DNA of 64,000 bases from assembly GCF_022965805.1 (NCBI RefSeq), contig NC_133117.1:12982183-13046182 (forward strand), in the 5' to 3' direction. This document shows positions 33,164 through 53,501 of the stretch, piece after piece; positions within the stretch are counted from its first letter, which is position 1, and each line of letters starts with the position of its first letter. The notes beneath the pieces were generated by a model, which was given only the letters and a program-made list of their open reading frames with translations, made no database searches and had not been told where the DNA came from. This DNA is from Primulina eburnea (Eukaryota; Streptophyta; Magnoliopsida; Lamiales; Gesneriaceae). The translations under genes were made by a program, and so were the position numbers.

Positions 33164-34900
33164 AAAGGATTGTGACTAAATTCGATAATATGTTGGAAAT
33201 ATCGTGAGGGTTATGATCTCAGTGAGAGCTCAACGATCGTGTTTCTTTGGATACGGATACGAATACGAATATGTTAATACATTGGCCAAAGCCCAGTTGA
33301 CCGGTGAGAGTGTTTCTGGTGTCCCCGCCGCCCAGTACAGTTGTTTTCTCTAGATGGATCCATCCCCCAATACGTTTAAGAATACGAGTCACAATCACGA
33401 TATGAATTCAACAAAAAAAATATGAATATGTTGATATGAATATGAATATGTTTATATGAAAATGTTTATGCAAAAGTTTATGCATTATGAAAATGTTTTT
33501 ATTTAAAGTATATACATCATGAAAATGTTTACGAAAATGTTTATGTTTAAAGTTTATGCATCTTCATGAACACGATATTTTAAGTACAAGTTTTTTTCAC
33601 TGTTGTATGTGATCTGTATATGTAGTACCCGTTATCAAGAATATGATAACATCGGTTATCATAAACATAAACAATTTAAAATAATGTATTTAAATAAATG
33701 ATGCCCCACTAAGACTCATTTTAAAATTAAATAAATGCTTTAATAATTAAATAAAACATCGGTTATACGTGTACTGAATTTGGGCACTACAAAAGGATTG
33801 TGACTAAAATCGATAATATGTTGGAAATATCGTGAGGGTTATGATCCCAGTGAGAGCTCGACGATCGTGTTTCCTTGGATACGGATACGAATACGAATAC
33901 GAATATGTTAATACATTGGCCAAAGCCCAGTTGACCGGTGAGAGTGTTTCTGGTGTCCCTGCCGCCCAGTACTGTTGTTTTCTCTAGATGGATCCATCCC
34001 CCAATACGTTTAAGAATACGAGTCACAATCACGATATGAATTCAACAAAAAAAAATGAATATGTTTATATGAATATGAATATGTTTATATGAAAATGTTT
34101 ATGCAAAAGTTTATGCATTATGAAAATGTTTTTATTTAAAGTATATACATCATGAAAATGTTTATGAAAATGTTTATGTTTAAAGTTTATGCATCTTCAT
34201 GAACACGATATTTTAAGTACAAGTATTTTTCACTGTTGTATGTGATCTGTATATGTAGTACTCGTTATCAAGAATATGATAACATTGGTTATCATAAACA
34301 ATTTAAAATAATGTATTTAAATAAATGATGCCCCACTAAGACTCATTTTAAAATTAAATAAATGCTTTAATAATTAAATAAAACATCGGTTATACGTGTA
34401 CTGAATTTGGGCACTGCAAAAGGATTGTGACTAAAATCGATAATATGTTGGAAATATCGTGAGGGTTATGATCCCAGTGAGAGCTCGACGATCGTGTTTC
34501 CTTGGATACGGATACGAATACGAATATGTTAATACATTGGCCAAAGCCCAGTTGACCGGTGAGAGTGTTTCTGGTGTCCCTGCCGCCCAGTACTGTTGTT
34601 TTCTCTAGATGGATCCATCCCCCAATACGTTTAAGAATACGAGTCACAATCAAGATATGAATTCAACAAAAAAAAATGAATATGTTGATATGAATATGAA
34701 TATGTTTATATGAAAATGTTTATGCAAAAGTTTATGCATTATGAAAATGTTTTTATTTAATATATATACATCATGAAAATGTTTATGAAAATGTTTATGT
34801 TTAAAGTTTATGCATCTTCATGAACACGATATTTTAAGTACAAGTATTTTTCACTGTTGTACGTGATCTGTATATGTAGTACTCGTTATCAAGAATATGA
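33034..34900. repeat. Three-copy ~628 bp tandem array spanning E2 LTR end and flank
   Basis: Units are about 33034-33660, 33661-34291 and 34292-34900. Each contains ~130 bp of the E2 LTR terminus, then ~500 bp of the neighbouring plus-strand LTR (aaaggattgtgac...ccaatacg...atgtttatg). LTR ends fall at 33163, 33791 and 34418, giving periods of 628 and 627. Units 1 and 2 end with a short filler, aacatcggttat, that copies a segment of the same LTR. Unit 3 runs on into unique flank. Confidence 0.9.
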
Positions 34901-35225
34901 TGTGTTGATTATTTAGATTCACTAGGTGTGATTGATGCAGGTGATATTGATTATGAATATGATAATGGAGGTCTTGATGGATAACTTTGTTGGACTGAAG
35001 GTGCACATAACCCGAGGACCGACACTAGTTTTTCGCACTAGTTTATGATTTATGTCAAGATATTTTTACGACGATCTATTTTTTAGTGGTTTTGAGAGGT
35101 TATAATATGAGCTATATTTTACAAATAATGTTTTTAGGTTTGGTAAAATGTTAGGCGATTTTATACTTTAAATTATTTCCTTTGGATTTTTAAATGATTA
35201 GTTGGTTGTTTTAAAAATGGGGTTG

Positions 35226-35813: not shown

Positions 35814-36977
35814 TGATAAACATAAAATTGTACATTAATTAAATGTTTTATAATATAAATATATAGTTTTTTTTTTATTAAATTTTTAAATATTATATGT
35901 TTTATAATAAATTGTACAAAATATAAATTGTTGTGTAATTATAAGTTTTTACTATTTTTTACAGGTTTGATAAAACAAGAATAAACTTTGCGTTACAAAT
36001 GGGATTAAGTTGATTCTTGGACATGTAGAAAGTTGATGTTAATATCTCCAATATTGGTGGCAAACATGAGATAAAAATCCTCTCACAATTGGGATCAAAT
36101 TAAGCAACAAATAAATTTACCAAAAGAGTGGAAGTTTTACCATGCTCTAGTATTTTGACCATATCTCTCAAATTACTTGGTCAAATGGTCTGAAAAAAAT
36201 ACCACAACTAGACAACTCAATTATCCACATGTTTCTTTTTATGTGAAGAAGCAAATTCGGAGAAGAAGATTTTCAAAAGTGATGTGTAATATAATATAAT
36301 ATCTGGGACACCAATGAAGACTTATGTGTAAAAAAATAATATTTTATTTTGTGGTTGTCTCCCCAAATTTGGCTATAAATAGGGGTGCATTGTAATGTAT
36401 TGAGATATCCCTCATTCTATGAACAAACCTTTGAGTTCATAATATTTCTCTCTATATTTTTCCTTTATTTCTTCATTTAAATATAATTAGCATGTTAATT
36501 TCATATTCAAAGTTTTACACTTTGAATAATGAATAGCAAACTTCCTAAAGTTGAGATGAAAAGGTGAAACTCTTGGCATGATAATAAGGTTACTAAAAGG
36601 TAAGAATCTATGTTTTATATTATTTAATCATTATTTATTTTTTATGTTATATTTATTTCTTTAAGCATTTTTATACCCTACTTATAAGTGGGAGTTGTGA
36701 TTTATTGTTGCTATAAGTTACACTAAATTCTTGGAACCATTTAAATGTTAGTTTGGTATTACCAACCATTTGAAGTTGATACCTTGATTTATTATATATG
36801 AATATATTATAATATTAAATTACTTGGAACCATTTAAATGTTTGTTTGGTTTTACCAACCATTTAAAGTGGGAACCTTGATTACTATATATAAATATATC
36901 ATAATATTAATTTCTTGGTACCATTTAAATGTTAGTTTGGTTTTACCAACTATTTAAAGTGGGAACCTTGATTTAGT

Positions 36978-37070
<93 letters not shown>

Positions 37071-37447
37071 AATAAATACTTGACAACATTTATAAGTTTT
37101 GGTATATATTATATACTTATAAGATAATAATATATAACATAATATAAATATGATTATTTAATATATTGGAACCATTTTTTTAAGTGGATTTCAATAATGT
37201 TCGTTAATATTAACTTTATTAAAATATCAGGAGTGAATCCTTTAATCTCAACTACTTAAATTAAAATTTGAACAATTAAAAATTACCAATTAAAGATTCA
37301 AACAACTAAAAGAAAAAATAAATAAAAAGACATTGTAGTGGACTTGTAATTACCTTAGCTTCCTCGTAGATACGATATTCGAACTCATCGAATTATACTA
37401 CTTGTGGACAACCTGCTCTTGGGAGTGCAACAATCAAAGTCGCAACA
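35814..37447 (+). repeat. Athila 5' LTR (1634 bp)
   Basis: Begins TGATAAACATAAAATTG and ends AAGTCGCAACA just before the primer site. Contains about three ~85-90 bp degenerate tandem units (36721-36970), each with ttggaaccatttaaatgttngtttggt...accaacc and a ccttgatt tail. A (TA)n tract of ~88 bp (36980-37067) is almost absent from the 3' LTR. The TATA-like ggctataaatagggg near 36370 is the likely promoter. Confidence 0.85.
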
Positions 37448-37449
37448 AG

Positions 37450-37649
37450 TTTTTTGCGCTGTTGCCGGGGAAGTATAATTTAATTTCAATTCTATTTAAT
37501 TTTGTTTATAGTTTATTTTTCTTTATTTGAATTTTTATTGCTTTTGTGTGTTTTTATTCTTTCGCATTTGCATTTGCATTTGCATGAGCATTTGGTCACG
37601 TACACTTAGTGGTCGACTCATTCGAAATAACCTTTTATTTTTACAAAAC
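37450..37649 (+). promoter_or_regulatory. Athila primer-binding site and leader
   Basis: tttttgcgctgttgccgggg at 37451-37470 is a slightly decayed form of the TGGCGCCGTTGCCGGGG primer site used by Athila/Tat elements. The leader up to the gag ATG at 37650 has a gcatttgcatttgcatttgcat run. Confidence 0.85.
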
Positions 37650-39515
37650 ATGGCGGAAGAACCCATCCAAGAAAATGAAGATGAAATTCAATCTCAACAT
37701 GATCATGAAAGACGAAGAACACTTAGAGATCACATGAATCCTGCACGTACTAGTGCACCTTCATGTCTAGTTTTTCCTCTTGATGCATCTCATTTCAATT
37801 TTAAGCCTGGTATTATCCAACTTTTACCCAATTTTCATGGCTTAGATCTGAAAATCCATACATGCATTTACGAGAGTTTGAAGAAGTGTGCAACACATAT
37901 AATGATCTAAATTGTAGCATGAACACCATTCGACTTAAGCTTTTTCCTTTTTCTTTAAAAGATAAAGCTTAAACTTGGCTACAAAATCTTAGATCAAGAT
38001 CCATTCGAACTTGGGATGAATTGCAACAACAATTTTTGAAAAAAAAATTTCCATCTCATAGAACAAATTCTTTCAAAAGGCAAATCATCAATTTCACTCA
38101 AAAAACAAGGAGAAACCTTTTATTAGTGTTGGGATAGATACAAAGAATTGCTTAATCTTTGTCCACATCATGGTTTTGAAATTTGGAGAGTTGTTTCTCA
38201 ATTTTATGAAGGCTTAGCACCTAAAGATAGGCAAATGGTTGAATTTATGTGTAATGGAACATTTGAAGATAAAGATCCAAACGAGGCAATTGAGTATCTC
38301 GATTCATTAGCTGAAAATGCTCAAAATTGGGACACTATAGGTACAATCGAACAATCAAACAAGATTCAATCTCCTACATCTGGTGGAGGTATGTACACTC
38401 TCAAAGATGAACATGATCTTCAAGCTAGATTTACCTTTTTGGCAAGAAAAGTTGAGGCACTTGAATTGAAAAAGAATAGTCAATTAAAATATGTTCAAGA
38501 AATTGCGTGTCACATCTGTGATACAAGTGACCATTTTACAAAAGATTGTTCCACTTTGACCTCTTTTAAAGAATGTCTCCATGAACAAGCCAATGTTTTG
38601 AACAATTTCAAAAGGTCAAATTTTGAACCATTTTCTCAAAATTACAATCCAGGTTGGCGTAATCATCCAAATTTTAGTTGGAGGAATGATAATGCTGCAC
38701 AATTTTCACAACCACATTTCCATAATCAACAAAATTTTCAAAATTATGCACCTTATGTTCCTCCACCTAAAAGGAATTTGGAAGATACATTGAATTCTTT
38801 CATTGCAAAGCAAGAGTCTATCAATACTCAAACTGCTCAAACCATAACAGATTTGAAAGATACTCTTGCTAAATTTGCATCTGCACTTAATGTTCATGAA
38901 AAAAGTAAATTTCCTTCACAACCTCTGCCTAATCCCAAGGATCATCATTCTCAAACTGGAACTTCTGGAACTCAACCGATGGATCAGGTAAAATCTGTTA
39001 TTACCCTTCGAAGTGGTAAGGTTGTGGAAAAATCCATTTTTGAACCTTGTGAAGATAATGATAAATCAACTCCAAAGGATAAGGAAGTGGAAACCATAAC
39101 TTGCGAAGAGGAGGTTCAACAGACAGTGTCACCACCATTCCCTCATGCATTGAAAAATACAAAAAAATCAAATTTGAATTCTGATATATATGATATTTTT
39201 AAACAAGTAAAAGTTAATATTCTTTTATTAGATGCAATAAAACAAGTACCATCATATGCCAAATTTTTGAAAGACTTGTGCACTGTGAAAAGAAAATTGA
39301 ATGTGAAAAAGAAAGCATTTTTAGCCGAACAAGTAAGTGCAATCATTCAAAATAATAATACTTTGAAATACAAAGACCCTGGTTGTCCTACTATTTCATG
39401 TATTATTGGAGAAAGAAAGATTAAAAAAGCCTTGCTTGATCTTGGAGCTAGTGTGAATTTACTTCCATATTCAGTTTATCAAGAACTCAATCTAGGCGAG
39501 TTAAAATCTCGGTAA
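37650..39515 (+). pseudogene. gag: Athila gag (and start of protease), broken
   Basis: The start at 37650 (MAEEPIQENEDE) leads into the conserved Athila Gag N-part (SAPSCLVFPLDASHFNFKPG). A frameshift falls near 37850, and there is a TAA at about 37968 and a further break near 38130. From 38148 the frame is open for 455 codons: MVEFMCNGTFEDKDP, a zinc knuckle CHICDTSDHFTKDC, a Gln/Asn-rich segment, VITLRSGKVV (the LRSGK hallmark near 39000), then the protease strand ALLDLGASVNLLPYSVY near 39430. The protease motif D-L-G replaces the usual D-T/S-G, as is common in plant Athila/Tat elements. The ORF ends at 39515 by frameshift. Confidence 0.8.
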
Positions 39516-41100
39516 TACTTTTACTTGCCGATAGATCTGTTAAGGTGCCAAGAGGTATGGTAGAAGGCGTGTTGGTCCAAGTTGATAACTTTGTATATCC
39601 TGTCGATTTCATAGTTTTAGATACACAACCTATCGAAGCTTGTCATGAAATTCCTGTAATTCTGGGTCGTCCATTTTTAGCAACTTCTAATGCCCTTATA
39701 AATTGCAGGAATGGAATAATGAAGTTTTCATTAGGTAACATGACCTTGGAGCTCAATGTTTTTAATCTTTGTAAGCAACCACATGACAAAGGATATGAAA
39801 GTGAAGATGAAAATCTTATTGAAACTCTTGTGGAAGAAAAAATTCAAAAAAGAAGTACTCGTGATCAGTTAGATATTTGTTCAATTGAAACTGTTAAAGA
39901 AAATATTGAAATTGATCTTGATGAATTTATCAGGTATCACTCGTTACCAGGATCAGAGAAATATTTGATGCAAAATATGAGAACAAAGACGAACCACCCA
40001 TATTGGAGTTAAAACCCTTGCCAGAAATTGAAATATGCATTTCTTGGAGAAGATGAAACATATCCGGTGGTAATTTCTTCCAAACTAGAAAGTGATCAAG
40101 AAGATTATTATCAAATTCCCATTGCACTCGAAGATCAAGAAAAAACTACATTCACATGTCCTTTTCGAACATTTGTATTCAGAAGGATGTCATTTGGTTT
40201 ATGCAATGTCCCAGCAACATTTCAAAGATGTATGCTAAGTATTTTTTGCGACATGGTTGAAAATTGTTTGGAAATTTTCATGGATGATTTAACTGTCTTT
40301 GGGAATACATTTGATAATTGTCTTGAAAATTTGGAAAAAGTTTTAAAAAGATGCGAGGAAAAAGGTCTTATTTTAAATTGGGAAAAATGTCATTACATGA
40401 TTACTTCTGGAATTGTTTTGGGACATGTCGTGTCATTTCATGAAATTGAAGTTGATAAAGCAAAAGTTGATGTAATTGCCAATTTACCCTCTCCAAAAAC
40501 CATTAAAGAAATTCGTTCATTTTTGGGGTATGCTAGATTTTATAGGAGGTTTATAAAGGACTTTAGTTTAATCTCTAAACCCATTTGTAACCTCTTAACA
40601 AAAGACACTGGAGTGGACTCAAGAATGTCAAAATGCTTTTGATAAAAGTATTCGACATTTAACATCATCTCCTATCATGCAACCTCCTGATTGGTCTTTA
40701 CCATTTGAAATCATGTGCGATGCGAGTGATTATGCAGTTGGTGCAGTACTAGGTCAAAGAAGAAACGGTAAGCCTTATGTGATATATTATGCAAGTAGAA
40801 CTTTAAACAATGCTCAAATGAATTACTCCACAACTGAAAAAGAACTACTTGCTGTAATATTTGCATTAGATAAATTTCGTTCTTATTTGATTGGATCAAC
40901 GACTATTGTGTTTACTGATCATTCTGCTATTAGATATTTGTTGACCAAACAAGATGCAAAGCCACGACTGATACGATGGATTTTGTTTCTCTAAGAATTT
41001 GACATTGTGATCAAAGATAAAAAAGGAACCGAGAATGTTGTAGCCGATTATTTATCGAGACTAGTAACAGGATCATCTTGTGAAATGACACCAATTAACG
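39516..41100 (+). pseudogene. pol: Athila protease end, RT (internally deleted) and RNase H
   Basis: The 39545-40012 frame completes the protease (VPRGMVEGVLVQVDNFVYP...IPVILGRPFLATSNALI). The 40028 frame begins with the region before RT (AFLGEDETYPVVISSKLES), then jumps to YYQIPIALEDQEKTTFTCPF. The fingers and first palm strands that should lie between (roughly 150 residues, including the conserved I-D-Y-R-K block) are missing. The rest of RT follows with FMDD near 40285. RNase H (40677-40994) has [29 protein letters not shown] and [10 protein letters not shown]. Frameshift near 40610; TAA at 40992. Confidence 0.8.
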
Positions 41101-41222
41101 ATAATTTTCCTGATGAACATCTATTTTCAGTTACTACTACACCTTGGTTTGCTAACATAGTAAATTTTCTTGTGACATGAAAAATGCCACCGTAATGGAG
41201 TTCCCAAGATAAAAGAAAATTT

Positions 41223-42407
41223 TTGAATGAGGTAAAAAACTTTTATTTGGATGATCCGTATTTGTTCAAGTATTGTCCAGATCAAATTTTTCGACGTTGC
41301 ATACCCGACAATGAGGTAAGTAGTGTCATTAAATTTTGTCATTCAGAAGCATGCGGAGGACATTTTTCTTCAAAGAAAACGGCTGCAAAAATCTTCCAGT
41401 GTAGATTTTATTGGCCCACTTTGTTTAAAGACACCCACAAAATCTGCAAGATCTGTGAAAATTGTCAAAAATTGGTGCGATTTTAAAAAGAAACATGATG
41501 CCTTTGAATCCCATCATTGAAATTGAAATCTTTGACTGTTGGGGAATTGATTTTATGGGACCTTTTCCACCGTCGTTTGGATACTTGTATATTTTAGTTG
41601 CAGTCGATTATGTTTCCAAATGGATAGAGGCAATTCCATGTCGAACAAATGATCATAAAATCGTCATCAAATTTTTAAAAGAAAATATTTTTAGTAGATT
41701 TTGAATTCCTCGAGCCATGATAAGTAATGAGAGAACTCACTTTGTTAATAAACCATTTGCTTCATAATGAAAAAATATTGTATTACTCATAAAGTAACTA
41801 CTCCTTATCATCCTCAAACAAATGGACAAGTTGAATTAGCTAATAGGGAGATAAAGCAAATTTTGGAAAAAACTGTTAACTCAAATAGAAAAGATTGGTC
41901 TCTGAGACTTAATGATGCACTTTGGGCATATCGAACAACTTTTAAAACATCATTGAATATGTCTCCCTATAGGTTGGTTTATGTAAAACATTGTCATTTG
42001 CCTGTGGAATTGGAACATAAAGCTTATTGGGCGATCAAAACTTTAAATTCAAGCATGGATGATGCCAACAAATTGCGTAAATTGCAACTTAATGAATTTG
42101 ATGAACTCAGAAATGACGCGTATAAGAATTCAAGGATTTATAAAGCAAAAATAAAATCATTTCATGATAAAACAATTCTTAGAAAATTTATTGAGATTGG
42201 TAAAAAAGTTTTGCTTTATAATTCTTGACTTCACATATTACCAGATGGACATGCCCATATGTTGTAAAGCATGTGTATACTTATGGAGCTGTGGATATTG
42301 AAAATCCTAAAAATGGTGATATTTTTAAAGTAAATGGACAAAGGCTTAAACCATTTTCAGAAAATGAAATCTTTCAAGAAGAGTTTATTTCCCTTTCTGA
42401 CCCTTGA
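41223..42407 (+). pseudogene. pol: Athila integrase, frame-broken
   Basis: HHCC zinc finger with H...H near 41340-41360 and CKICENCQK at 41443-41470. The catalytic core has [16 protein letters not shown] (first Asp, 41530). A TGA at about 41702 and changed sequence surround the second Asp (MISNERTHF: Asp replaced by Asn). The third block, [20 protein letters not shown] (with the Glu), is near 41810. The C-terminal domain (FKVNGQRLKPF) ends at 42407. At least three frame breaks and the D-to-N change make it inactive. Confidence 0.8.
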
Positions 42408-42593
42408 TTTTTTTAATTAATTTTTTGGTGTTGCATTTAAGTTTGTTTGTTTTTATTTCAGGATTTCTTCATCTTTTTAATTTCCCGATTACATGGCGGA
42501 TAACGGTACTCCGTGACTCTCATCGTCGGTTAAATCAGTTTCCCACAATTGCTGATATAAAAATAAAAAAAAGTCATTTCTTTTATTTTCAAA
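42408..42593 (+). promoter_or_regulatory. Spacer with splice-acceptor-like site before the extra ORF
   Basis: A long T-rich run ends in tttttatttcag at 42450-42461, a strong 3' splice-site match, 130 nt upstream of the ORF at 42594. Plant env-like retroelement ORFs are thought to be made from spliced RNA; this site could serve the same purpose. No expression evidence is available. Confidence 0.4.
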
Positions 42594-43139
42594 ATGGATG
42601 AAATTCTCTCAAAAATTTATAAATATTTTCCCTCTGTTTCTGAAAATATTCTAAGAAAAATTTATGCAGGAATGTGTGAAAGATTGAGATTGCTAATGCA
42701 AAAAGAAATTCCAGAAGATATTTGTCTTGTAATAGAAGCTAAGTTCCGATTAGGAGGAGAAGTTCCACAATCATTGCTCATTCGGTATTTGCCTGGATTA
42801 GAAAAAAGCACTTATGCGAAAAAACGAAGGGCCAAAAGTTTAAGGGTTTGTCATAAGTGTGCAAGATGGACTTGTGACAAACGATGCAGATCTTTGGGAT
42901 GTGTTTCCAATAACAGAGAAGATAAAATTGGTTTCATTAAGAATGGGCTGAGTAAGGAGTCTTTAGATAACATCTTATTGACTCTTGAGACGCATTCTAG
43001 TGGACATGTGCATATTGAACTTCTCCGTTTATGGAAAAAATTCCAAGATGAGAGTCATAGTCTTGGGAATCCGACTAAAAAAGACCCTGTTTGCCAATTT
43101 ATAAGAAAATTGGATGGGAAGCATATCCTCGACTCATAG
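42594..43139 (+). CDS. Unrecognised Cys-rich extra ORF in the Athila 3' region (181 aa)
   Basis: Intact ORF in the place where other Athila elements have an env-like gene, but with no signal peptide or membrane segment. I do not recognise the family. Residues 1-70 are mostly helical in composition (YKYFPSVSENILRKIYAGM...). At about 84-101 there is a compact cluster CHKCARWTCDKRCRSLGC, which could bind zinc. The rest is charged (LETHSSGHVHIELLRLWKKF, then NPTKKDPVCQFIRKLDG). No stop or frameshift in 181 codons contrasts with the decayed gag-pol and suggests it was kept or decayed later. It could be an accessory element protein or a captured host fragment. Its neighbour 165 bp downstream is the LOG gene. 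Confidence 0.55.
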   Translation: MDEILSKIYKYFPSVSENILRKIYAGMCERLRLLMQKEIPEDICLVIEAKFRLGGEVPQSLLIRYLPGLEKSTYAKKRRAKSLRVCHKCARWTCDKRCRSLGCVSNNREDKIGFIKNGLSKESLDNILLTLETHSSGHVHIELLRLWKKFQDESHSLGNPTKKDPVCQFIRKLDGKHILDS

Positions 43140-43280
43140 AAGGCGTTTAAGCCGTTTCTGGACATAAAACCAGAGGAAAATTGTGAGCCACAATCACAGT
43201 ACTGTTTATATGCTGTGACCCATAGTTTTGTCATGATAACATATTACCCCTATAAAATCTCTCATCTTTCTCTCTATTTG

Positions 43281-43304
43281 CAGACAAAAAAAGAAAGTAA
43301 AAAC
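43281..43304 (+). promoter_or_regulatory. Splice-acceptor-like site just upstream of the LOG start
   Basis: A pyrimidine-rich tract, ctttctctctatttgcag, ends at 43283, 21 nt before the ATG at 43305. It fits the plant 3' splice consensus well. It would allow LOG to be translated from a spliced subgenomic RNA; it might also be a relic of a host intron. Confidence 0.45.
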
Positions 43305-43941
43305 ATGGCTGGATCCTCTACACAAAAATTGAAAAATATTTGTGTATTTTGTGGGTCGAGTCCTGGAAAAAATGAAGTGTTTGTAGAAGCAACGAATAAT
43401 TTTGGAAAGATATTGGTTGATAGAAAAATTCACTTGGTATATGGGGGAGGTAATATTGGGTTAATGAGATCTGTTTCAACATCTGCTCATCTTGGAGGTA
43501 GTCAGGTTTTGGGTATTATTCCAACAGCTTTAGCTGAAGGAAATATTACAAGTGTTACGATTTGGGAGGAATTAAAAGTTTTTTCTATCTATGAAAGAAC
43601 CACTCAAATGATTGAAAATTCTGATGCTTTTATCGCACTACCAGGTGGTTTTGGTACATTAGAAGAAATTTTTCACACTGTTTCTTGGCACAACTTAATA
43701 TCCATAATAACCTGTGGGATTGTTGAATATCAATAATTATTATGACATTTTGTTGACATTTCTTGATAAAGCTGTGGAACAGAATTTCATTTCAGAAAAT
43801 TCACGACAGATGCTCATCTGTGCTTCGACTGCCGACCAACTAATTGATGATTTAGAAGCTTTTGTTCATAAGCCTGATCCGATGATAACAAAGATCAATT
43901 GGTCGCAATCAAGCAGTAAGATTAGGAAGTTGGATCATTGA
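43305..43941 (+). pseudogene. LOG: LOG-like cytokinin riboside 5'-monophosphate phosphoribohydrolase inside retroelement, one frameshift
   Basis: LOG enzymes release active cytokinin base from the riboside monophosphate in the cytosol. The start at 43305 (MAGSSTQKLKNICVFCGSSPG) matches the usual LOG N-terminus. Then come the nucleotide-binding VYGGGNIGLM (residues 45-54), a conserved Arg at 98 (IYERTTQM) and the family signature PGGFGTLEE (113-121). At about residue 134 (near 43705) the frame shifts. The C-terminal third (PVGLLNINNYYD...FLDKAVEQNFIS...LEAFVH) continues in the +1 frame to 43941. Total length is about 212 codons, like normal LOG (200-230). Plant LOG genes have several introns; this copy has none, so it was reverse-transcribed. 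It is diverged from typical plant LOGs (for example NIGLM and SIYERTTQM), so the capture is not recent. Identification is firm; activity is unlikely in this copy because of the frameshift. Confidence 0.88.
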
Positions 43942-45172
43942 TTCAAAAGTCGTGGATTGGTTTGCGTTTGTTTCAGTTTGTTATCTTCAATAAAATTCTA
44001 GGTGATATCTCTTTCATTATATACTCTTTATTAATAGTTATTTTGATATTAGGGATAATGTCATATTCTGCTTGGGGGGAGAACAAACTTATAAAAAAAA
44101 ATTAAAAATTTTTTATAAAAAATATATATTATTTTAAAATAAGATCATGTTTATTGTTTGTATCTTAGTAATTTTTGCAAAAATTTATACATTACATGTT
44201 TGAAAGATTTAAATTAGAACATGCATTAATCTACTTAAGAATGTTTAAATTTTTATTTGAAAAAAAAAGTCAATTTTAATATTCTGATCAATATAAAAAT
44301 ATGATTTATGAAATCTTTTTGAGTGATTAACAATTGTGATAAAATCAGGTATTAAAGTATATGGCCCAAGATATACCTTATAAGAGTGCCTAAAATTTTA
44401 AACTCACACATATTTTTTGAGTGAGTGGAGAGGACTGAGAAAACAGCTTTCGAGCCTTTATTGATCATGAGAGAGACTATATATTGTTTAGATCTTGATT
44501 TCTTATTTTGAAAAAAAAATGATATTTTCTGAAAAAAAAGAAAAAAAAGAGAAAAATACAAAAAGAAAGATATTGAAGATCTATGTAATTTTTAAGTTAT
44601 ATGCTATGACCCATATATCTCTCATAAAAAAAAAAGAGAGAGAGAAATTTATTGTACAAATTAAATAAATATGTGGTCAAGAAGCATAAACTTAGTCTCA
44701 TTCTATGATGTTATGAAAAAATAATATATATATCAGGAAAAAATATATAATAAGAACAACTAGATTTTGAATCAATGGATTTTCTATCTTTTGATTAGTT
44801 TGGCTCGTTTGTCTCTCTGCATTCTGTAAACCATTTTTCTGAGCATTTATCTGTATTTCAACTCCATGAGAGAAATCGTTGTCATAAATTGAAACATTTA
44901 TTAACCTGTGAGGATATAGAGTTGAGACTCTTACTAGGAATTTCTGTAGGCCGTGTACATTTAACTACCTGAAATAAGCTTTTAAATTAATAATCTCAAA
45001 TTATTTCATAAATTATAATTATGATGATCTTGATATAACTTTGACAGTTTTCAAATTTAATTTAAACATTTAGATAGTTTTGATTACATTTCTATTTAAA
45101 TTAATCAATATGTTTTGTATTGCTATTACCGCTTAAATTGCTAGGGACTAGTAATAAGCTGGTTGAGAGGTG
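43942..45172 (+). other. Athila 3' untranslated region with polypurine tracts
   Basis: No credible ORF; AT-rich with A-runs. The tract cttggggggagaac at 44071-44084 resembles the internal purine tract found downstream of pol in Athila/Tat elements. The tract ggttgagaggtg (45161-45172) lies directly against the 3' LTR and is the probable plus-strand primer. Confidence 0.6.
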
Positions 45173-46375
45173 TGATAAACATAAAAAATTTACATTAATT
45201 AAATGTTTTATAATATAAATCTATAGTTTCTGTTTTATTAAATGTTTAAATATTATATGTTTTATAATAAATTGTATAAAATATAAGTTGTTGTGTAATT
45301 ATAAGTTTTTACTATTTTTTACAGGTTCGATAAAACAAGAATAAACTTGGCGTTGCAAATGAGATTAAGATGATTCTTGAACCTGTAGAAAGTTGATGTT
45401 AATATCTACAATATTAGTGGCAAGCATGAGATAAAAATTCTCTCACAATTGGGATCAAATTAAGCAACAAATAAAGTTATCAAAGGAGTGACAGTTTTAC
45501 CATGCTCTAGTATTTTGACCATATCTCTCAAATTACTTGGTCAAATGGTCTGAAAAAAATACCACAACTAGACAACTCAATTATCCACATGTTTTTTTTA
45601 TGTGAAAAAGCAAATTCGGAGAAGAAGATTTTAAAAAGTGATGTGTAATATAATATAATATCTGGGACACCAATGAAGACTTATGTGTAAAAAAAATAAT
45701 ATTTTATTTGTGGTTGTCTCCCCAAAATTGGTTATAAATAGGGGTGCATTGTAATGTATTGAGATATCCCTCATTCTATGAACAAACCTTTGAGTTCATA
45801 ATATTTCTCTCTATATTTTTCTTTTATTTCTTCATTTAAATATAATTAGCATGTTAATTTCATATCAAAGTTTTACACTTTGAATTATGAATAGCTAACT
45901 TCCTAAAGTTGAGATGAAAATGTGAAACTCTTGGCATGGTAATAAGGTTACTGAAAGGTAAGAATTTATGTTTATATTATTTAATCATTATTTATTGTTT
46001 ATGTTATATTTATTTCTTTAAGCATTTTTATATCCTACTTAAAAGTGGGAGTTTTGATTTATTGTTGCTATATGTTACACTAAATTCTTGGAACCATTTA
46101 AATGTTAGTTTGGTATTATCAACCATTTAAAGTGGATGCCTTGATTTAATATATATGAATATATTATAATATTAAATTACTTGGAACAATTTAAATGTTT
46201 GTTTGGTTTTACCAACCATTTAAAGTGGGAACCTTGATTTACTATATATAAATATATCACAATATTAATTTCATTGTACCATTTAAATGTTAGTTTGGTT
46301 TTACCAACCATTTAAAGTGGGAACCTTGATTTAGTGTTTACAAATATATATATAGCACAATAAAGTGGGAACCGT
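45173..46375 (+). repeat. Athila 3' LTR, truncated by copia C2
   Basis: Begins TGATAAACATAAAAAA and aligns with the 5' LTR through the ~85-90 bp tandem units to cacaataaa at about 46363. A short extra gtgggaaccg follows, then C2. The last ~350-450 bp of the LTR are absent, and I do not find them on the far side of C2. Confidence 0.85.
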
Positions 46376-48446
46376 AAAGCGGACCGGTTACGGAGGCCGG
46401 AAACGCAACGGAAGTCAAAAATTAAATTTTATAGCTCAAAAATTTTCGGCCCCCTCAAATGTTTTGTGTAATATTTGCAAAAAACTAAAACATACGTAGG
46501 GTGTTAGAAATTTCATTACCTATCAACTTCAAGAAGTTGATGATGGCACCAACTTTGTTGTGAACAACAAAGCTCTTCAAATGGAAGACAAGTCTACAAG
46601 CTCACCTTTTCCTCTTCAAGAATTAGGCCCACCACTTAGCTATGTAAATCCCCTCAAGTTTTGCACTAGAAAAACTCAAGGATTTTTCAAAGAGAAATTT
46701 TGTTCTCAACAAATTGAAGAACACAATGAAGAAAAATTTGAGAGAGAAGAGGGAAGAAGTTTCGGCCAAGAGGAGGAGGGAATGAGGGAGTGAAGTCTAG
46801 ACTTGGGTGTGGGAAAAGTTGGGAGACAAAAGTTGCATGCTTTTGAATTTTTTAATAAAAAAGTATTCCACACCTCTTCACCTCCCAAGCATGCAAACCC
46901 TAGCATGTCATGCATATATAATATGGTTTTTAACACATTAAAAATCATGGACTAAATTTTAATTATCTCAAACACATTTGAGATTAATTAAATACTACTT
47001 GAATTTATTCAAGTCCCACTAGTTAAATAATTATTTTAATTGAGCTCTACTAGACTCAATATTATTAATTCAACACTTGAATTATATTTAATTATTTGGA
47101 CTCTACTAGGTCCACTAGTGTTTAATTAATTCAACACTTGAATTAATTTAATTTAGTCCCCAATAATGTTTATGAAAATCACAATTTTCAACTACATTAT
47201 TTACTTGGCCAAATTTTAATCTTAGGAACACTTCCATAAATTAAAATTTATATTTCTCTCTTAGAAGTCAAACTTCTATTTTTCTTAACGCTTATAAACA
47301 AATTTATAAGCCGTTCAACACATTGAACTATTTTACTTCTCATCGGGATTTACTAAGCAAGTACTTGTGTGGCCCTCAATGGTTCATTGATACAACTAGC
47401 CGTGGGTTCACATCTCTATGTGATTCGGACTAAACATGTCCTTATTCGAGCATACCCCAATTGCTCCATTCTTACTTATCAACTCCTTGATAGTAAGAAC
47501 GTCAGAACTCAAGTCTGATAGTACCCAACCAATCACGTTAAACGCCTAGCAGCATCGCTTACGTGATTCCCTAGGTATCACATGATAGTGCCTGCAAGAA
47601 CCATTCAATTATGGTTAGCGTACAGTACGGTCCCTTCAACTCATATATCCCGACCGATTCGACAACTATTGGTTTATCGAGAGTTGTCAATGAATCGATA
47701 CTATGTGTCATGTCGTAGTTGCATCGATGGTGTAATCTATGAAACCCTTTCATAATTACCACCATACTCTGATCAGAGATTTCAACCTACATACACATGA
47801 TAACACATAGGATATCCATACCCGAAGGTAAGCGGTGAATCCCCGACTACAATGCATCGACTCCTATGTGTTTCGACAGAACACCCAACCTTGCCACCTG
47901 ATGACCCCATGAGAGTCGGTAAACAAGTCAAAGTGTAATTCTTGCACATAGAGTCTCAATGTTGTCCCGGGTCATAAGGACTAATTCTGTACAACCATAA
48001 ACCAGGACTTTTCCACTCGATAAGTGAGAACCACTTGGAAAGTCCTTTTATGGAGGGTTGTTCAGTGCACTCTACAAGGAGCACCTATCTGCATGTTCGG
48101 ACATCACAATGTCCCCTACCAATGAAACATGGTACTCACATCGCAGATACTAGTCTCTAACTCGAGCGGCCTTTATCCTTCTTAGTGGCGGCTGAATCGA
48201 CTAGGAACGGTTTAGAATATACAGTATTCCAAATATGAGTTTCATGATACTCATCATATGAGCATCTCATATTCTTTCTACTATTTGTATATTCAAGGGC
48301 TTTATCTATGCAACTAGCATGGGTATACAGATAAAGATGTGCCATAATAATAATTTCAAATATTATTAAAATAAAGATTGCTTATACATAGAGTTTCATT
48401 GCGAACACTCGGCCAACACTTGGCTCGACGGGCACCTACTCTAACA
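46376..48446 (-). repeat. C2 3' LTR (2071 bp)
   Basis: On the plus strand from aaagcggaccgg to cctactctaaca (element start TGTTAGAGTAGG). ORFs inside, for example 46560-46793 (77 aa) and its antisense 46948-46706, recur unchanged in the other LTR because the LTRs are near-identical; I see no sign that they are genes. Confidence 0.85.
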
Positions 48447-48458
48447 ATCTCCCACTTG
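48447..48458 (-). promoter_or_regulatory. C2 polypurine tract
   Basis: The element strand reads AAGTGGGAGAT directly before the LTR start TGTTAGAG: the plus-strand primer for reverse transcription. Confidence 0.75.
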
Positions 48459-48537
48459 CACTAGAGCCAACTACCCATATGCTTTAATCCCATTGATTCG
48501 CGATGCTTGTCGAATAATGGTCCAGGTAAAGGCTTAG

Positions 48538-50760
48538 CTAGTGGATCAACAACATTATCGACGGAGCCGACTTTGTCAAAGACATTTCTCCTCTTTCCAC
48601 AATCTCTCCGAGGATGTGGTACTTTCTCAATACTAGTTTGGATTTCTGATGAGACCTTGGCTCCTTTGCTTGAGTTAAAGCTCCCGTGTTGTCACACAAC
48701 ACCGGGACAGGAGCAACTCCATTAGGAATGACGCCCAACTCTTGGACGAAATTCCTTATCCAAACAGCCTCCCTTGCTGCATCTGATGCAGCAATGTATT
48801 CGGCCTCTGTGCTGGAATCCGTAATATTGTCTCGCTTGGAACTCTTCCAAGAGACAGCAGCACCATAGAGCATGAATACAAAACCAGAGGTTGACTTCGA
48901 GTCATCGATATCGCTTTGGAAGCTAGAGTCGGTATAGCCTTCCAATTTTAGTTCTCCACCCCATAGACCAAGAACAATTTATTGGTCCTTCTCAACTACT
49001 TGAGGATGTCTTTCACAGCTTTCCAGTGTGAAAGACCAGGGTTCGATTGATATCTACTCACTACACTTAGTGCGAAAGCCACGTCAAGACGTGTAGATAT
49101 CATCCCATACATGATGCTACCAATTGCCGAAGCATACGGAATGCGTGTCATCGCCACTATCTCTGCATCAGTCTTGGGAGACAGACTTGGATAGGGACAC
49201 GCCATGACACATTGGTAGATGTCTTCTCATGGACTCATCCATCGAGAACCGCTTCACGATGGTATCAATGTATGTGGACTGGGTGAGACGAAGCAATCTT
49301 CTTGATCTATCTCTATAGATCTGTATTCCCAATACAAAAGATGCTTCACCCAAGTCCTGCATTGAGAACTTACTTGCTAACCATATCTTTGTTGATTGCA
49401 ACATTCCTACATCATTCCCAATGAGTAGAATGTCATCAACATAAAGAACAAGGAATGTCACAGCACTCCCACTGACCTTCTTATACACACAGGGTTCCTC
49501 AGGATTCTTAGTAAAACCAAACTCTTTGATTGTACTATCGAATCTGAGGTTCCAACTCCTCGATGCCTGCTTAAGACCATAAATAGATCTTTGAAGTTTG
49601 CATACCATATGCTCACTTCCGATAGATGTGAAACCCTCAGGTTGAGACATGTAAATTTCTTCCTTAATATCCCCATTAAGGAAGGCTGTCTTAACATCCA
49701 TCTGCCATATCTCATAGTCATACCATGCAGCTATGGCTAGCAAAATCCTTATGGACTTGAACATTGCGACTGGGGAAAAGGTTTCCTCAAAGTCAACTCC
49801 TTGTCTTTGAGTATATCTTTTTGCCACCAATCGCGTCTTGAAGGTCAACACCTTCCCATCCTCCCCAAGTCCCTGTGGGAACAGTTCCCACAGGTGGATC
49901 CACAAGATCCTACACTTGGTTCGAATGCATGGAATTCAACTCAGATTCCATTGCTTCAAGTCACTTGGATGAATTGGCATCAGATAACGCTTCTTTGAAG
50001 GTCCTTGGATCACATCCAAGATTAGGCTCATCATGGCCCTCTTCAAGAAGCAGACCATACCTCATAGGTGGTCTCGAGACTCTCTCGGTTCTTCTAGGAG
50101 CTTGTATCTCCTCTCTTGGCTCTTCGGGTGTGGGTTCTTCAATTGTGGGTGTCTCTCGAACCTCTTCGAGTTCTATCATCTCCCATTTTCTATCCAATAG
50201 AAATTCCCTTTCCAAAAAGGTCGCATTCCCAGAAACAAACACCTTTGTTTCTTGGGGATGATAGAAATAATATCCAACTTAATTCCTTGGATATCCCACA
50301 AAGTAACATAAAATGGATCAACAATCCAATTTATCTCCCACTACCTGCTTCACATAAGCAGGGCTCCCCATATTCTAAGATGAGAATATTTGGGAGGCTT
50401 ACCCATCCATATCTCATATGGTGTCTGCCTTTGAATGGACATTTAATGGAATATCTTTTAACTTTAAGTTATAGAGATCGTTTTCAAGTTCTCAAGTACC
50501 AATTAAACATTCATTCTTGTAAATGTTGCAAAAACCTTTGCTAAATAAACAAGAATATCCATTTTTATCACAATAGAAATGGAAACAATGTTTTACACCA
50601 AACAGGTACAAACAAAACATCTCTTAAAATTAACTTAAAGTCATTGTTCAACAATAAGTAAACATCCTTAATAGCCTTGGTAGCAACTCTTGCTCCATTG
50701 CCCATCCTCAAGAAGGTCACACCTTCCTTAAGCTTCCTACTTCTTCCCATCACCTGTAAC
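48538..50760 (-). pseudogene. pol: C2 pol: protease remnant, RT and RNase H; integrase core missing
   Basis: From the right, 50753-50568 holds the protease/pre-integrase part (MGNGARVATKAIKDVYLLL). Within only ~330 bp the sequence passes from a pre-integrase phrase (ENDLYNLKLKD) to the post-integrase block (TPYEIWMGKPPKYSHLRIWG, GDKLD, then VFVSGNATFLEREFLLDRK at 50242). The HHCC finger and DDE core should need 750 bp or more there, so they are deleted. RT (49905-49168) is largely open: VDFEETFSPVAMFKSIR, QMDVKTAFLNGDIKEEIYM, SIYGLKQASRSWN and YVDDILLIG. RNase H (48945-48538) has [19 protein letters not shown] and [11 protein letters not shown]. Stops and frameshifts lie near 50240-50470, 49190 and 48960. 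Confidence 0.8.
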
Positions 50761-50834
50761 CCATTACAGAGATGTGAGTCACAACCGGTATCTAATACCC
50801 AAGAAGTAGAGTTAATTGAAATGTTTACTTAAAT

Positions 50835-51695
50835 TTAGAACATACCGTTTCCAGAACACTTCTGGGCCAGATATTCCTTGCAATTTCGCTTCCAATTTCC
50901 AGGCTTCTTGCAGTGATGACAAACATCACCAGTCTTGTCAGCCTTAACTGGTCTGGCTGTCTCAACAAGATTCGGAGATTGCCTCAACAAGGGCACGTTC
51001 CTTTTGGGACGTTGGAAAGAACTCTTCTTTCCCTTCCCATGTGGATCAATCTTCGTACCAGATGAAGAACCCACATAAAGAACCAACTTCTCTTTCTTGA
51101 TGGTGGATTCAAACGTAACAAGCATGTTCACCAACTCCTCAAGGGTCGGTTCCATCTTGTTCATGTTGAAATTCACCACAAAAGGATCAAATGAGCTAGG
51201 CAGCGATAACAGCAACACGTCGGTGGTCAACTCCGAAGGTAAGATCAGATCCATGCCAACGAGCTTGTCCACGAGCCCGATCACCTTTAGGCCATGCTCA
51301 TGGACCGAGGTCCCATCTCGCATACGCAAAGTGATCAGCTCCTTGACGGTAGCATGCCTAAGAGGACGCGTTTGCTCTCCAAAGAGCTCTTTGAGGTGCA
51401 AATGTATGTCAGCAGCATTCTTTGCACCCTCAAAACGCCTCTGCAGCTCATCATTCATAGAAGTCAGCATATAACACCTGGTTATCAAGTCATGGTCACA
51501 CCATTCCTTGTAAGCCTGCAATTCCTCAGGAGTGCAGTCAGTCGGAGCCTCAACAGGGGGCGACTGAGTCAGTGTATATGTTACCCTTTCCGAATTCAAG
51601 ACTATTTTCAAATTTCTTAGCCAAGTGAGGTAATTAGGTCCAGTTAATATGTGTTTGTCGAGTATTACAGATATCGAATTGCGCATCGAAGACAT
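50835..51695 (-). CDS. gag: C2 gag (286 aa)
   Basis: Open UBN2-type copia Gag. The start MSSMRNSISVILDKH is at 51695, with conserved LTGPNYLTWLRNLKIVL, CYMLTSMNDELQRRFE, then LLLSLPSSFDPFVVNFNMNK. The basic tail and a zinc knuckle, CHHCKKPGNWKRNC, come near the end. It stops shortly after the knuckle (QKCSGNGMF). An intact Gag with a defective Pol suggests that this copy can still supply or use capsids. Confidence 0.85.
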   Translation of the reverse strand: MSSMRNSISVILDKHILTGPNYLTWLRNLKIVLNSERVTYTLTQSPPVEAPTDCTPEELQAYKEWCDHDLITRCYMLTSMNDELQRRFEGAKNAADIHLHLKELFGEQTRPLRHATVKELITLRMRDGTSVHEHGLKVIGLVDKLVGMDLILPSELTTDVLLLSLPSSFDPFVVNFNMNKMEPTLEELVNMLVTFESTIKKEKLVLYVGSSSGTKIDPHGKGKKSSFQRPKRNVPLLRQSPNLVETARPVKADKTGDVCHHCKKPGNWKRNCKEYLAQKCSGNGMF

Positions 51696-53484
51696 TGTCG
51701 ATTTGTACTAAAAAGTAAAAACAGATAAATGTTGATGACTATTTTAAATATTTAGTAAGATATGAAGTTTGGACTTTTACTTCATAAATATTTGCTCCCA
51801 CTGTTTTGACATCTTTCACTACCCTCTAGTGAAAACGGGAAACTCCTTTCCTCAGTAGGTACGTAAGGTCCAATTAGCGAATTGTGATCCCGAATAATAT
51901 CAGCCAATCACAATTCCTAAAAGGTAGTTTCCAATTGCATCACAATGCAACCCTCTACGTAAACTTTTGTCTCACGTTTGATTAGGACCCAGTCATATGA
52001 CGTCGTTCATCTTTACGTGTCAAGCCTAACCCATCGATGTTGAACCTTAACGGACGGTCGCCATGAGTTCCCTCAATAATATGAGCCGAAATCATGGGAG
52101 TTCCACGTAGTTCACATCACAATGTCAATGGATGTCACAGCTTTCCGGCACCCAGGGCCCCCTCAATAATATGAGCCGAGCCCCGAGTACGGGTAGCGTT
52201 CATCATGCACCCATTGTCGATGGAAGACAAGGAAATTATAAACAAATTTATAATTCCCTTTTTCGGACTTGATATTAATTTTGAATCTTATTCAAAATGA
52301 GGGTTTTTAATTTTTGAAAGGTCTCATCATTAATTTTATTTTAAAAGCTCGCCATGTTTGATCGTATGTTTGCCGGATTCATGCAACTTTGTTATTATCA
52401 TAATAATAACGCACATACTCATTATTTATAACATATCATGCATATATTATAATAGAAAACAGTACAAGGATGATCAATTGCCCCAATACTAATGGCCCGT
52501 GTGAGCCAAACACGGGCCTAGGTCTAATCCTAGGGTAAATGCAGGGATGCAATGCAACTAAATTATTACATTAGCATCCAATATTACATGTCTTCGATCT
52601 TCATAATCACCAAGGCCACCATCTTCCAATCTTGATCTTCCACTATTCTAATATTTACATTTAAATATCCATGGCACATAGGGATACATCTCATGGGGGT
52701 GGGAACGGACCATAAACCAAGCCCACTTTATAAATTGATAATTATTACAATCATACAACACAAATATCCTAGCATACACCTAGCAAATTGGGCTTGGGCT
52801 TTTGATCATCCTTCATGCATAATATCACATATTATACACCATCAATTAATTATCACTATAATTAATTGATCCAATATTATATATCTTGATCCAATCACTA
52901 ACCGCCACAATTATAAATTAAATCAACAAAGTATACAAACTCCTTTGTCTACTTTCAAATTAATTTATTTATAATCGAATTTCTTGTAAATCACAATTTA
53001 CTATAAATAATTAAAGTCCTACTTCAATTATTTATTTTATGAGAAAATATGTGCAACAATTGTAAATTTAAACTTAAGGGCCCAAAAACCATTTTTCACC
53101 AAAAATATTTTGGCCCATTTAAATTTCACAAATTATGTTGTCCATCCAATGGCCCAACATCTCAAGGTCCATGACACTAAGATTGTCCAAAACACTTTTG
53201 GAAACCCTAGCCGTCATCACCGTCGCCGGAGTTCCGTCGCCGGATTCCGGCAACACAAAATTTTTTTTTTATTTTAAAAATGAAGCATTTCGGGCAGCCC
53301 CTTGGGCTGCCCCTCGGCTGCCCGAAATTTTCGGGCAGCCCCTTCGGGCAGCCCCGAAAAACATTTTTTTTTTTTGTTTTTCAAAATATTTCGGTCCTTG
53401 CATTTTGTTGCACCAACAAATCTCAAACGGTTAGAAATTGATCTCAACATAATATTATGCAAATATTACACAAAAACCGTAACC
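51696..53484 (-). other. C2 long untranslated leader with repeated structured motifs
   Basis: About 1.8 kb without a credible ORF. The phrase ccctcaataatatgagccga occurs twice (52070 and 52150), with a related aataatatcagccaatcac at 51893. Such duplicated motifs suggest RNA structure used for packaging or translation. The part nearest the primer site carries the GGGCAGCCCC palindromes described separately. Confidence 0.6.
53288..53358. repeat. GGGCAGCCCC palindrome cluster in the C2 leader
   Basis: Five GGGCAGCC/GGCTGCCC arms in alternating orientation within 70 bp, including TCGGCTGCCCGAAATTTTCGGGCAGCC, whose two halves can pair. It stands out as a GC island in AT-rich flank. Confidence 0.8.
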
Positions 53485-53485
53485 A

Positions 53486-53499
53486 TAGCTCTGATACCA
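53486..53499 (-). promoter_or_regulatory. C2 tRNA-iMet primer-binding site
   Basis: The minus strand reads TGGTATCAGAGCT, the complement of the initiator tRNA 3' end, 2 nt from the LTR boundary at 53502. Confidence 0.85.
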
Positions 53500-53501
53500 C
53501 T

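What the first reader, a model, noticed from the sequence alone, without database searches (positions are those of the whole stretch)
43305..43941. Cytokinin-activating LOG gene captured by an Athila-like retrotransposon
Between integrase and the 3' LTR, in the usual env position, lies a LOG-like gene without introns. It keeps GSSPG, VYGGGNIGLM, a conserved Arg at 98 and PGGFGTLEE. Only one frameshift breaks ~212 codons, while the gag-pol of the same element has many breaks and a big deletion. It is diverged from ordinary plant LOGs, so it may have travelled with the element for a long time under selection. An element that makes active cytokinin could favour division of the cells it replicates in. 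That role is inference.
Basis: partly seen in the sequence, partly recalled or inferred. Interest (0 to 1): 0.88.

Follow-up and report, generated by a model that had tools for sequence, protein, structure and literature searches.

The report
Retrotransposon with virus-like and hormone genes
A family of plant jumping genes carries, beside a gene for an enzyme that switches on a growth hormone, a second gene resembling a plant-virus protein known to block RNA silencing; the copy here is broken, but related intact genes occur in several plants.

Summary
The LOG gene is real: an intronless cytokinin-activating-enzyme gene with one frameshift, between integrase and 3' LTR of a decayed Ty3/gypsy element. 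LOG in gypsy elements is in print, so that part is not new. One frameshift is what neutral decay gives; this copy shows no selection. The family does: relatives form one clade apart from the host LOGs sampled, with LOG-like site constraint.
(1) The ORF just upstream, 42594-43139, belongs to the flexivirus cysteine-rich/nucleic-acid-binding family, known silencing suppressors. Equal contig lengths suggest that both genes sit together elsewhere; L001 has it without LOG in view. (2) 67 of 77 long LOG relatives end in a basic cluster plus LxLxL (EAR-like) tail, against 0 of 119 LOG3-type host sequences; the window's subclade keeps only the basic part. (3) Strong splice-acceptor-like sites precede each gene.
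Most likely a two-gene host-manipulation cassette: silencing suppressor/nuclear regulator plus cytokinin activation. Activity and splicing are inferred. The window's own genome could not be searched.

The parts
35814..37453 (+). 5' LTR; start from the LTR alignment, end inferred from the PBS-like motif
37454..37473 (+). primer-binding-site-like motif; its likeness to the Athila/Tat PBS is recalled
37512..42407 (+). decayed gag-pol: gag-like, protease-like (by eye), RT, RNase H and integrase pieces in several frames
42441..42461 (+). 3' splice-acceptor-like site before the NABP gene (rank 1 of 1385 scored AG sites on the + strand)
42494..42545 (+). conserved leader; 42494-42519 identical to L001 in 26 of 26 bases
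42594..43139 (+). intact 181-codon ORF: cysteine-rich nucleic-acid-binding protein (NABP/CRP) of flexivirus type
43095..43205 (+). block conserved with L001 across the NABP stop; hairpins predicted in both
43262..43283 (+). 3' splice-acceptor-like site 21 nt before the LOG ATG (rank 3 of 1385)
43305..43736 (+). LOG, first frame; leaves the family sequence shortly after PGGFGTLEEIFHTVSW
43711..43941 (+). LOG, second frame, to the stop; ends in a basic stretch without LxLxL
44071..44081 (+). G-rich tract after LOG, similar by eye to one after NABP in L001
45173..46373 (+). 3' LTR, cut short by the neighbouring repeat that starts at about 46376

Best explanation
The window holds a dead copy of an Athila-type LTR retrotransposon from a lineage that carries two accessory genes after integrase. 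The first encodes a cysteine-rich, basic, zinc-finger-like nucleic-acid-binding protein homologous to those of carla-, allexi- and related flexiviruses, which are RNA-silencing suppressors and in one case a transcription factor tied to cell size and proliferation. The second encodes a LOG enzyme, which makes active cytokinin. L001 shows the first gene with no LOG in view, so LOG was probably added to (or lost from) elements that have it. Each gene follows a strong 3' splice-acceptor-like site, so both are probably made from spliced subgenomic RNAs, as env is in retroviruses. Likely working: the NABP blunts silencing of the element's RNA and/or reprograms nuclear transcription; LOG raises cytokinin, and in most lineages its basic plus LxLxL tail would take it to the nucleus and to TOPLESS-type corepressors. 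Together they would favour dividing, meristem-like cells from which new insertions can reach the germ line. Shown: anatomy, homology, clade, conserved active-site residues, tail, NABP constraint. Inferred: splicing, localisation, enzyme and suppressor activity, benefit to the element.
For: LOG identity. NABP: the window ORF is below the cut-offs of Carla_C4 (18.6 bits, cut-off 20.9) and Viral_NABP (18.5, cut-off 23), but 91 of 101 aligned sequences match each family at E 0.01, and of 10 relatives scanned singly 9 pass the Viral_NABP cut-off (best 34.1 bits, up to about 90 residues) and 9 the Carla_C4 cut-off. Viral structure library: the first three of 8 listed matches are flexivirus silencing-suppressor/NABP proteins, none significant alone (E 0.77, 1.2, 3.3). 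Integrase next to NABP in L001 and, by eye, an integrase end fused to NABP in P0052 of Rhamnella. NABP and LOG relatives lie on contigs of equal length and source type, 8723 and 4511 bases; chance of two such 0.0006 by length jitter. NABP dN/dS window v L001 0.27, bootstrap 0.16-0.43. LOG column variability follows outgroup conservation, rho -0.60. R98 and E121 invariant in the 22 rows aligned, 21 of them element-type. Tail 67 of 77 v 0 of 119. Acceptors rank 1 and 3 of 1385; the one before NABP in L001 ranks 1 of 80. Viral CRP functions: passages of PMC12172455 and PMC8742542.
Against: This copy is broken. No expression, splicing or enzyme data. The window's LOG subclade (P0121, P0122, P0158, P0170) lacks LxLxL. 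LOG dN/dS not computed. Of 77 long LOG relatives 10 lack PGGxGTxxE and 7 the Arg pattern. Most LOG relatives were not shown to sit inside an element, and contig sharing rests on equal lengths, not names. Five of 1380 minus-strand sites score as high as the lower acceptor, and one other plus-strand site ranks between the two. The first NABP model gave no flexivirus hit and the PDB none. In the last 45 codons of NABP pN is not below pS. Function is by homology only.
Confidence: 0.6

Rival explanations
1. LOG and NABP are passengers: caught once, copied with the element, with no role in its life cycle.
For: The window copy decays at a neutral-looking pace. L001 shows no LOG. Some LOG relatives have lost motif residues: 10 of 77 lack PGGxGTxxE and 7 of 77 lack GGGxxGLM.
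Against: LOG-type site constraint among 20 representatives that are 55-78% identical to each other; NABP dN/dS 0.27; 16 of those 20 keep the LxLxL tail.
Confidence: 0.15
2. LOG reached the element recently as a retroposed host mRNA in this one copy.
For: Intronless frame.
Against: The window LOG nests in the element-type clade, 90% identical to P0121, itself 52% identical to Arabidopsis LOG3; no flanking repeat of 10 bases or more.
Confidence: 0.02
3. The flow was the other way: flexiviruses took their cysteine-rich suppressor from this retrotransposon lineage or from a shared plant source.
For: The non-viral family is large: 265 proteins at E of 1 or better, 120 listed, with plant names on several.
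Against: No viral sequences could be put in one tree with them here, so direction is untested.
Confidence: 0.2
4. The LxLxL tail is a general feature of some host LOG subfamily not sampled here, so the tail came with the captured gene.
For: The host control was drawn with a LOG3 query, and only AtLOG8, without its tail, was added.
Against: 0 of 119 of those sequences has it, from names that span monocots, eudicots and a conifer.
Confidence: 0.2

Closest known systems
Gypsy elements with a LOG (YgdH) extra domain in Citrus and Populus (PMC9289625 section 12; Steinbauerova et al. 2011, Athila-like with LOGL4 similarity, recalled)
   Same: LOG domain as an extra in a gypsy element
   Different: Neither a NABP neighbour nor a basic/LxLxL tail is mentioned in the section read; the listing here adds Diplodiscus, Reevesia, Parasponia and Primulina
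Flexivirus cysteine-rich nucleic-acid-binding proteins (PF01623, PF05515)
   Same: Basic stretch followed by a Cys cluster; up to about 90 residues of profile match
   Different: Encoded by a retrotransposon, with a long C-terminal part of its own that is conserved among the relatives
Plant LONELY GUY enzymes (At2g37210, At5g11950)
   Same: Family, R98, E121, YGGG and PGGxGT motifs
   Different: 46-55% identity to AtLOG3 in ten relatives compared, separate clade, basic plus LxLxL tail in most
Orchid gypsy elements with an AlkB-type m6A demethylase (PMC9289625 abstract)
   Same: Element with an acquired gene that may counter host control
   Different: Other gene, Phalaenopsis only

Membership tests
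LOG (cytokinin riboside 5'-monophosphate phosphoribohydrolase) | Profile match PF03641 | tested here: met
   both pieces above cut-off
LOG (cytokinin riboside 5'-monophosphate phosphoribohydrolase) | PGGxGTxxE motif and conserved Arg (catalytic roles recalled) | tested here: met
   window sequence; family
LOG (cytokinin riboside 5'-monophosphate phosphoribohydrolase) | Enzyme activity | not testable with these tools
   none
Athila lineage | Ty3/gypsy pol with LTRs and extra 3' ORF, without chromodomain or aRH, placed by RT/INT phylogeny | tested here: inconclusive
   RT, RH and INT found and no chromodomain hit in the seven pieces scanned; no tree with reference elements was made
Flexivirus NABP/CRP (PF05515, PF01623) | Profile match above the curated cut-off, for the family | tested here: met
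   9 of 10 single relatives for each model; L001's passes PF05515
Flexivirus NABP/CRP (PF05515, PF01623) | Profile match above the curated cut-off, for the window ORF by itself | tested here: not met
   18.6 of 20.9 and 18.5 of 23 bits
Flexivirus NABP/CRP (PF05515, PF01623) | Basic stretch next to a Cys cluster | tested here: met
   window and alignment; strict pattern in 92 of 120 relatives
Flexivirus NABP/CRP (PF05515, PF01623) | RNA-silencing suppression | not testable with these tools
   none
EAR-motif (LxLxL) protein | LxLxL in the protein's tail | tested here: not met
   Met by 67 of 77 long relatives but not by the window copy or its subclade

The most novel reading that the evidence does not exclude
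A widespread plant retrotransposon lineage carries a two-gene host-manipulation cassette, a virus-type silencing suppressor/transcription regulator plus a nuclear cytokinin-activating enzyme that docks on TOPLESS corepressors through a C-terminal EAR tail, both made by alternative splicing, to keep its cells silencing-poor and dividing.
Probability: 0.35. Interest if true: 0.9.

Novelty: new variant of a known kind. Interest (0 to 1): 0.7.

Why it matters
It would be a plant retrotransposon armed like a virus: a suppressor of the defence that silences it, together with a hormone enzyme. How plant LTR elements escape silencing in the cells that feed the germ line is open, and the two genes make it testable with ordinary assays. 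It also links a flexivirus suppressor family to transposons, so the direction of gene flow can be asked. And some genes annotated as LOG in plant genomes may be element genes.

Tried and rejected
Own genome: the genome search with where=own did not complete, so copy number and LOG dN/dS in the source plant are unknown, and the plant was not identified.

IMG/VR scans with NABP, LOG or the conserved leader found nothing. The prokaryote collection gave one locus, L001, a plant-type element contig filed in a bacterial MAG.

First NABP model: pLDDT 56, no flexivirus hit; a second, of P0022 with 101 sequences, reached 72.9. PDB: no match.

NABP-TAG-LOG as a read-through fusion: both frames are in register with one TAG between, but the conservation past the stop is at base level and P0064 reads on only to a short end, so an RNA element is the simpler reading. 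Folding of the leader gave no support for structure (z -0.55 and 0.73).

Contig sharing: a pair of equal length 2128 (P0081, P0125) also fits both genes but was outside the 4000-base limit that I set for the test after seeing the lists; equal lengths of 1006, 950 and 905 bases were set aside because both genes do not fit on them.

Literature: the searches (listings seen) showed no paper on a carlavirus-type NABP in a plant LTR element, nor on an EAR tail in LOG; they cover open-licence PMC papers only. Seen: PMC9289625 outline, passages and section 12; passages of PMC6317226, PMC8742542, PMC12172455 and PMC3136472 (the last reports a flexivirus replicase-like insert in cucumber, no NABP in the passages). 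Not held: the DOI tried for Steinbauerova 2011 and PMC3634699, Lukhovitskaya 2013, which I know only as cited. Supplements were not open to me.

Full report
OBSERVATION. From the ATG at 43305 one frame runs to 43736, and a second frame carries on to the stop at 43941. Both pieces pass the Pfam cut-off for PF03641, and the first hits Arabidopsis At2g37210 in the PDB at E 1.6e-34. P0121 (212 aa) is 89% identical to the first piece over 92% of it, and its C-terminus closely follows the second, so one frame break is enough to explain the window copy.

THE ELEMENT. The LTRs align from 35814-36996 to 45173-46354 at 95.0% over 1186 columns, 52 mismatches and 7 gap openings. A PBS-like motif lies at 37454-37473, and RT, RNase H and integrase pieces lie between, in seven ORF pieces of 90 aa or more. 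The 3' LTR is cut at about 46373 by another repeat. The Athila assignment rests on the recalled PBS and on recalled literature for LOG-bearing elements; no RT tree was made.

IS THIS COPY UNDER SELECTION? No sign of it. Half of 7 gap openings over 1186 columns is about 2 indels per 636 bp per lineage (my arithmetic), so one frameshift is expected. The window's end branch is 0.12 changes per column against 0.012 for P0121.

WHAT LIES NEXT DOOR. The ORF 42594-43139, intact, is the main thing missed. Its best 120 relatives (of 265 at E of 1 or better) all carry a precomputed PF01623 label, the carlavirus nucleic-acid-binding protein, and many also PF05515. The window ORF itself scores below the cut-offs. 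In my own scans 91 of 101 sequences match each family at E 0.01; these 101 are 100 of the 120 relatives, near full length, and the window. Of 10 scanned singly, 9 pass the PF05515 cut-off (P0102 fails) and 9 the PF01623 cut-off (P0010 fails), over up to about 90 residues. The alignment of 33 shows a basic stretch and a Cys cluster; a strict pattern for the two together is found in 92 of 120. A model of P0022 (pLDDT 72.9) has as its first three of 8 viral matches the silencing suppressors or NABPs of Chrysanthemum virus B, Grapevine Kizil Sapak virus and Garlic virus A, none significant by itself; an earlier, poorer model gave no such hit. Named hosts include Populus, Xanthoceras, Acer, Rhamnella and Orobanche.

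THE TWO GENES LIKELY TRAVEL TOGETHER, BUT NOT ALWAYS. Relatives of both lie on contigs of equal length, 8723 (P0022, P0123) and 4511 bases (P0019, P0139). Contig names are not given, so 'same contig' is inferred; jittering lengths gives two such coincidences in 0.0006 of trials, using the 16 NABP and 15 LOG contigs of 4000 to 100,000 bases in the listings. P0052 of Rhamnella looks by eye like an integrase end fused to NABP. L001, a 3330-base contig in a bacterial MAG, has an integrase (rve, E 2.4e-16) and an intact NABP (PF05515, 34.2 bits). None of 240 LOG sequences finds more than a chance match in it (best E 0.008, minus strand, inside the integrase region). The contig ends 983 bases after the NABP stop, so a LOG further on is not excluded; with one such locus, gain or loss of LOG cannot be told apart.

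SELECTION ON NABP. Window against L001: dN/dS 0.27, bootstrap 0.16-0.43 over 180 codons. Synonymous difference falls from 0.5-0.7 in the first two thirds to 0.06-0.28 in the last third, and near-identity goes on past the stop. In the last 45 codons pN is not below pS (for codons 135-165 0.26 against 0.18), so constraint on the bases, or recombination, confounds that part.

THE LOG CLADE. 104 rows: 77 relatives of 205 aa or more (of 120 listed out of 7819 at E 1e-10; 43 shorter ones left out), the window's first piece, 24 host rows (23 and AtLOG8) and 2 bacterial. Element-type LOGs are one side of a branch at 100/99. The window sits with P0121, P0122, P0158 and P0170. Named hosts are rosids and an asterid (lineages of three looked up). 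Twenty representatives below 80% identity average 64% (55-78%); their column entropy falls with conservation in the outgroups, rho -0.60, p 6e-22. R98, G114, G117 and E121 are invariant in the 22 rows aligned, 21 element-type and one host. Against this, over all 77, 10 lack PGGxGTxxE, 7 GGGxxGLM and 7 the Arg pattern, as expected if some copies are dying; 12 of 114 host sequences lack PGGxGTxxE too.

THE TAIL. LxLxL in the last 14 residues: 67 of 77 element-type, 0 of 119 LOG3-query host sequences. Basic cluster: 74 of 77 against 1 of 119. Typical: KKRKLDLTLRL. Among the 20 representatives 16 have LxLxL; P0121, P0158 and P0170, of the window's subclade, and P0193, whose tail is altered, do not. 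The resemblance to plant EAR motifs is recalled. The host control is of LOG1/3/4 type only, by the names listed.

SPLICE ACCEPTORS. By a simple score set up after I had noticed the sites, the AG at 42460 ranks 1 and that at 43282 ranks 3 of 1385 on the + strand; 5 of 1380 minus-strand sites score as high as the lower of the two. In L001 the site before NABP ranks 1 of 80. In P0128 the residues FFIFIQ just before the LOG start imply a similar T-rich tract ending in CAR. No donor was tested.

FUNCTION. Flexivirus cysteine-rich proteins suppress silencing and set symptoms; [quoted passage not shown] the primary paper not seen). LOG regulates cytokinin activity (PMC9289625 section 12). Both point to dividing cells; that is inference.

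NOVELTY. LOG (YgdH) in gypsy elements of Citrus and Populus is in print (PMC9289625 section 12). That section, on 121 genomes, names no NABP. My searches listed none either; they cover open-licence PMC papers only. New here, as far as those searches go: the virus-type partner, the tail, the acceptors.

Noticed in passing
43095-43205 and L001 2300-2405: Base-level conservation across the NABP stop with hairpins predicted in both (z -1.4 and -1.7) and one compensatory change (CUGG/CCAG against CUAG/CUAG, by eye); maybe a cis-acting RNA element.
   Followed up: partly
42494-42545: Leader before NABP conserved with L001, 26 of 26 bases at 42494-42519; Rfam gave only one chance-level match in the region, elsewhere (E 0.4).
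   Followed up: partly
43137-43139: NABP and LOG are in one frame, parted by a single TAG and 55 open codons.
   Followed up: partly
46376-55463: Young LTR-type element: 1960-base repeats 99.9% identical at its ends, copia-like pol ORF on the minus strand at 49168-49935 (by eye).
   Followed up: no
33034-34901: About 627-base direct repeat in three copies.
   Followed up: no
L001 1-3330: Plant-type retrotransposon contig filed in a Candidatus Nomurabacteria MAG (DAIEQH010000041.1), most likely contamination.
   Followed up: yes
P0170, P0151, P0169, P0174: Genes annotated 'LOG3-like' or 'LOGL10' in Primulina and Populus fall in the element-type clade, so they may be element genes annotated as host genes.
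   Followed up: partly
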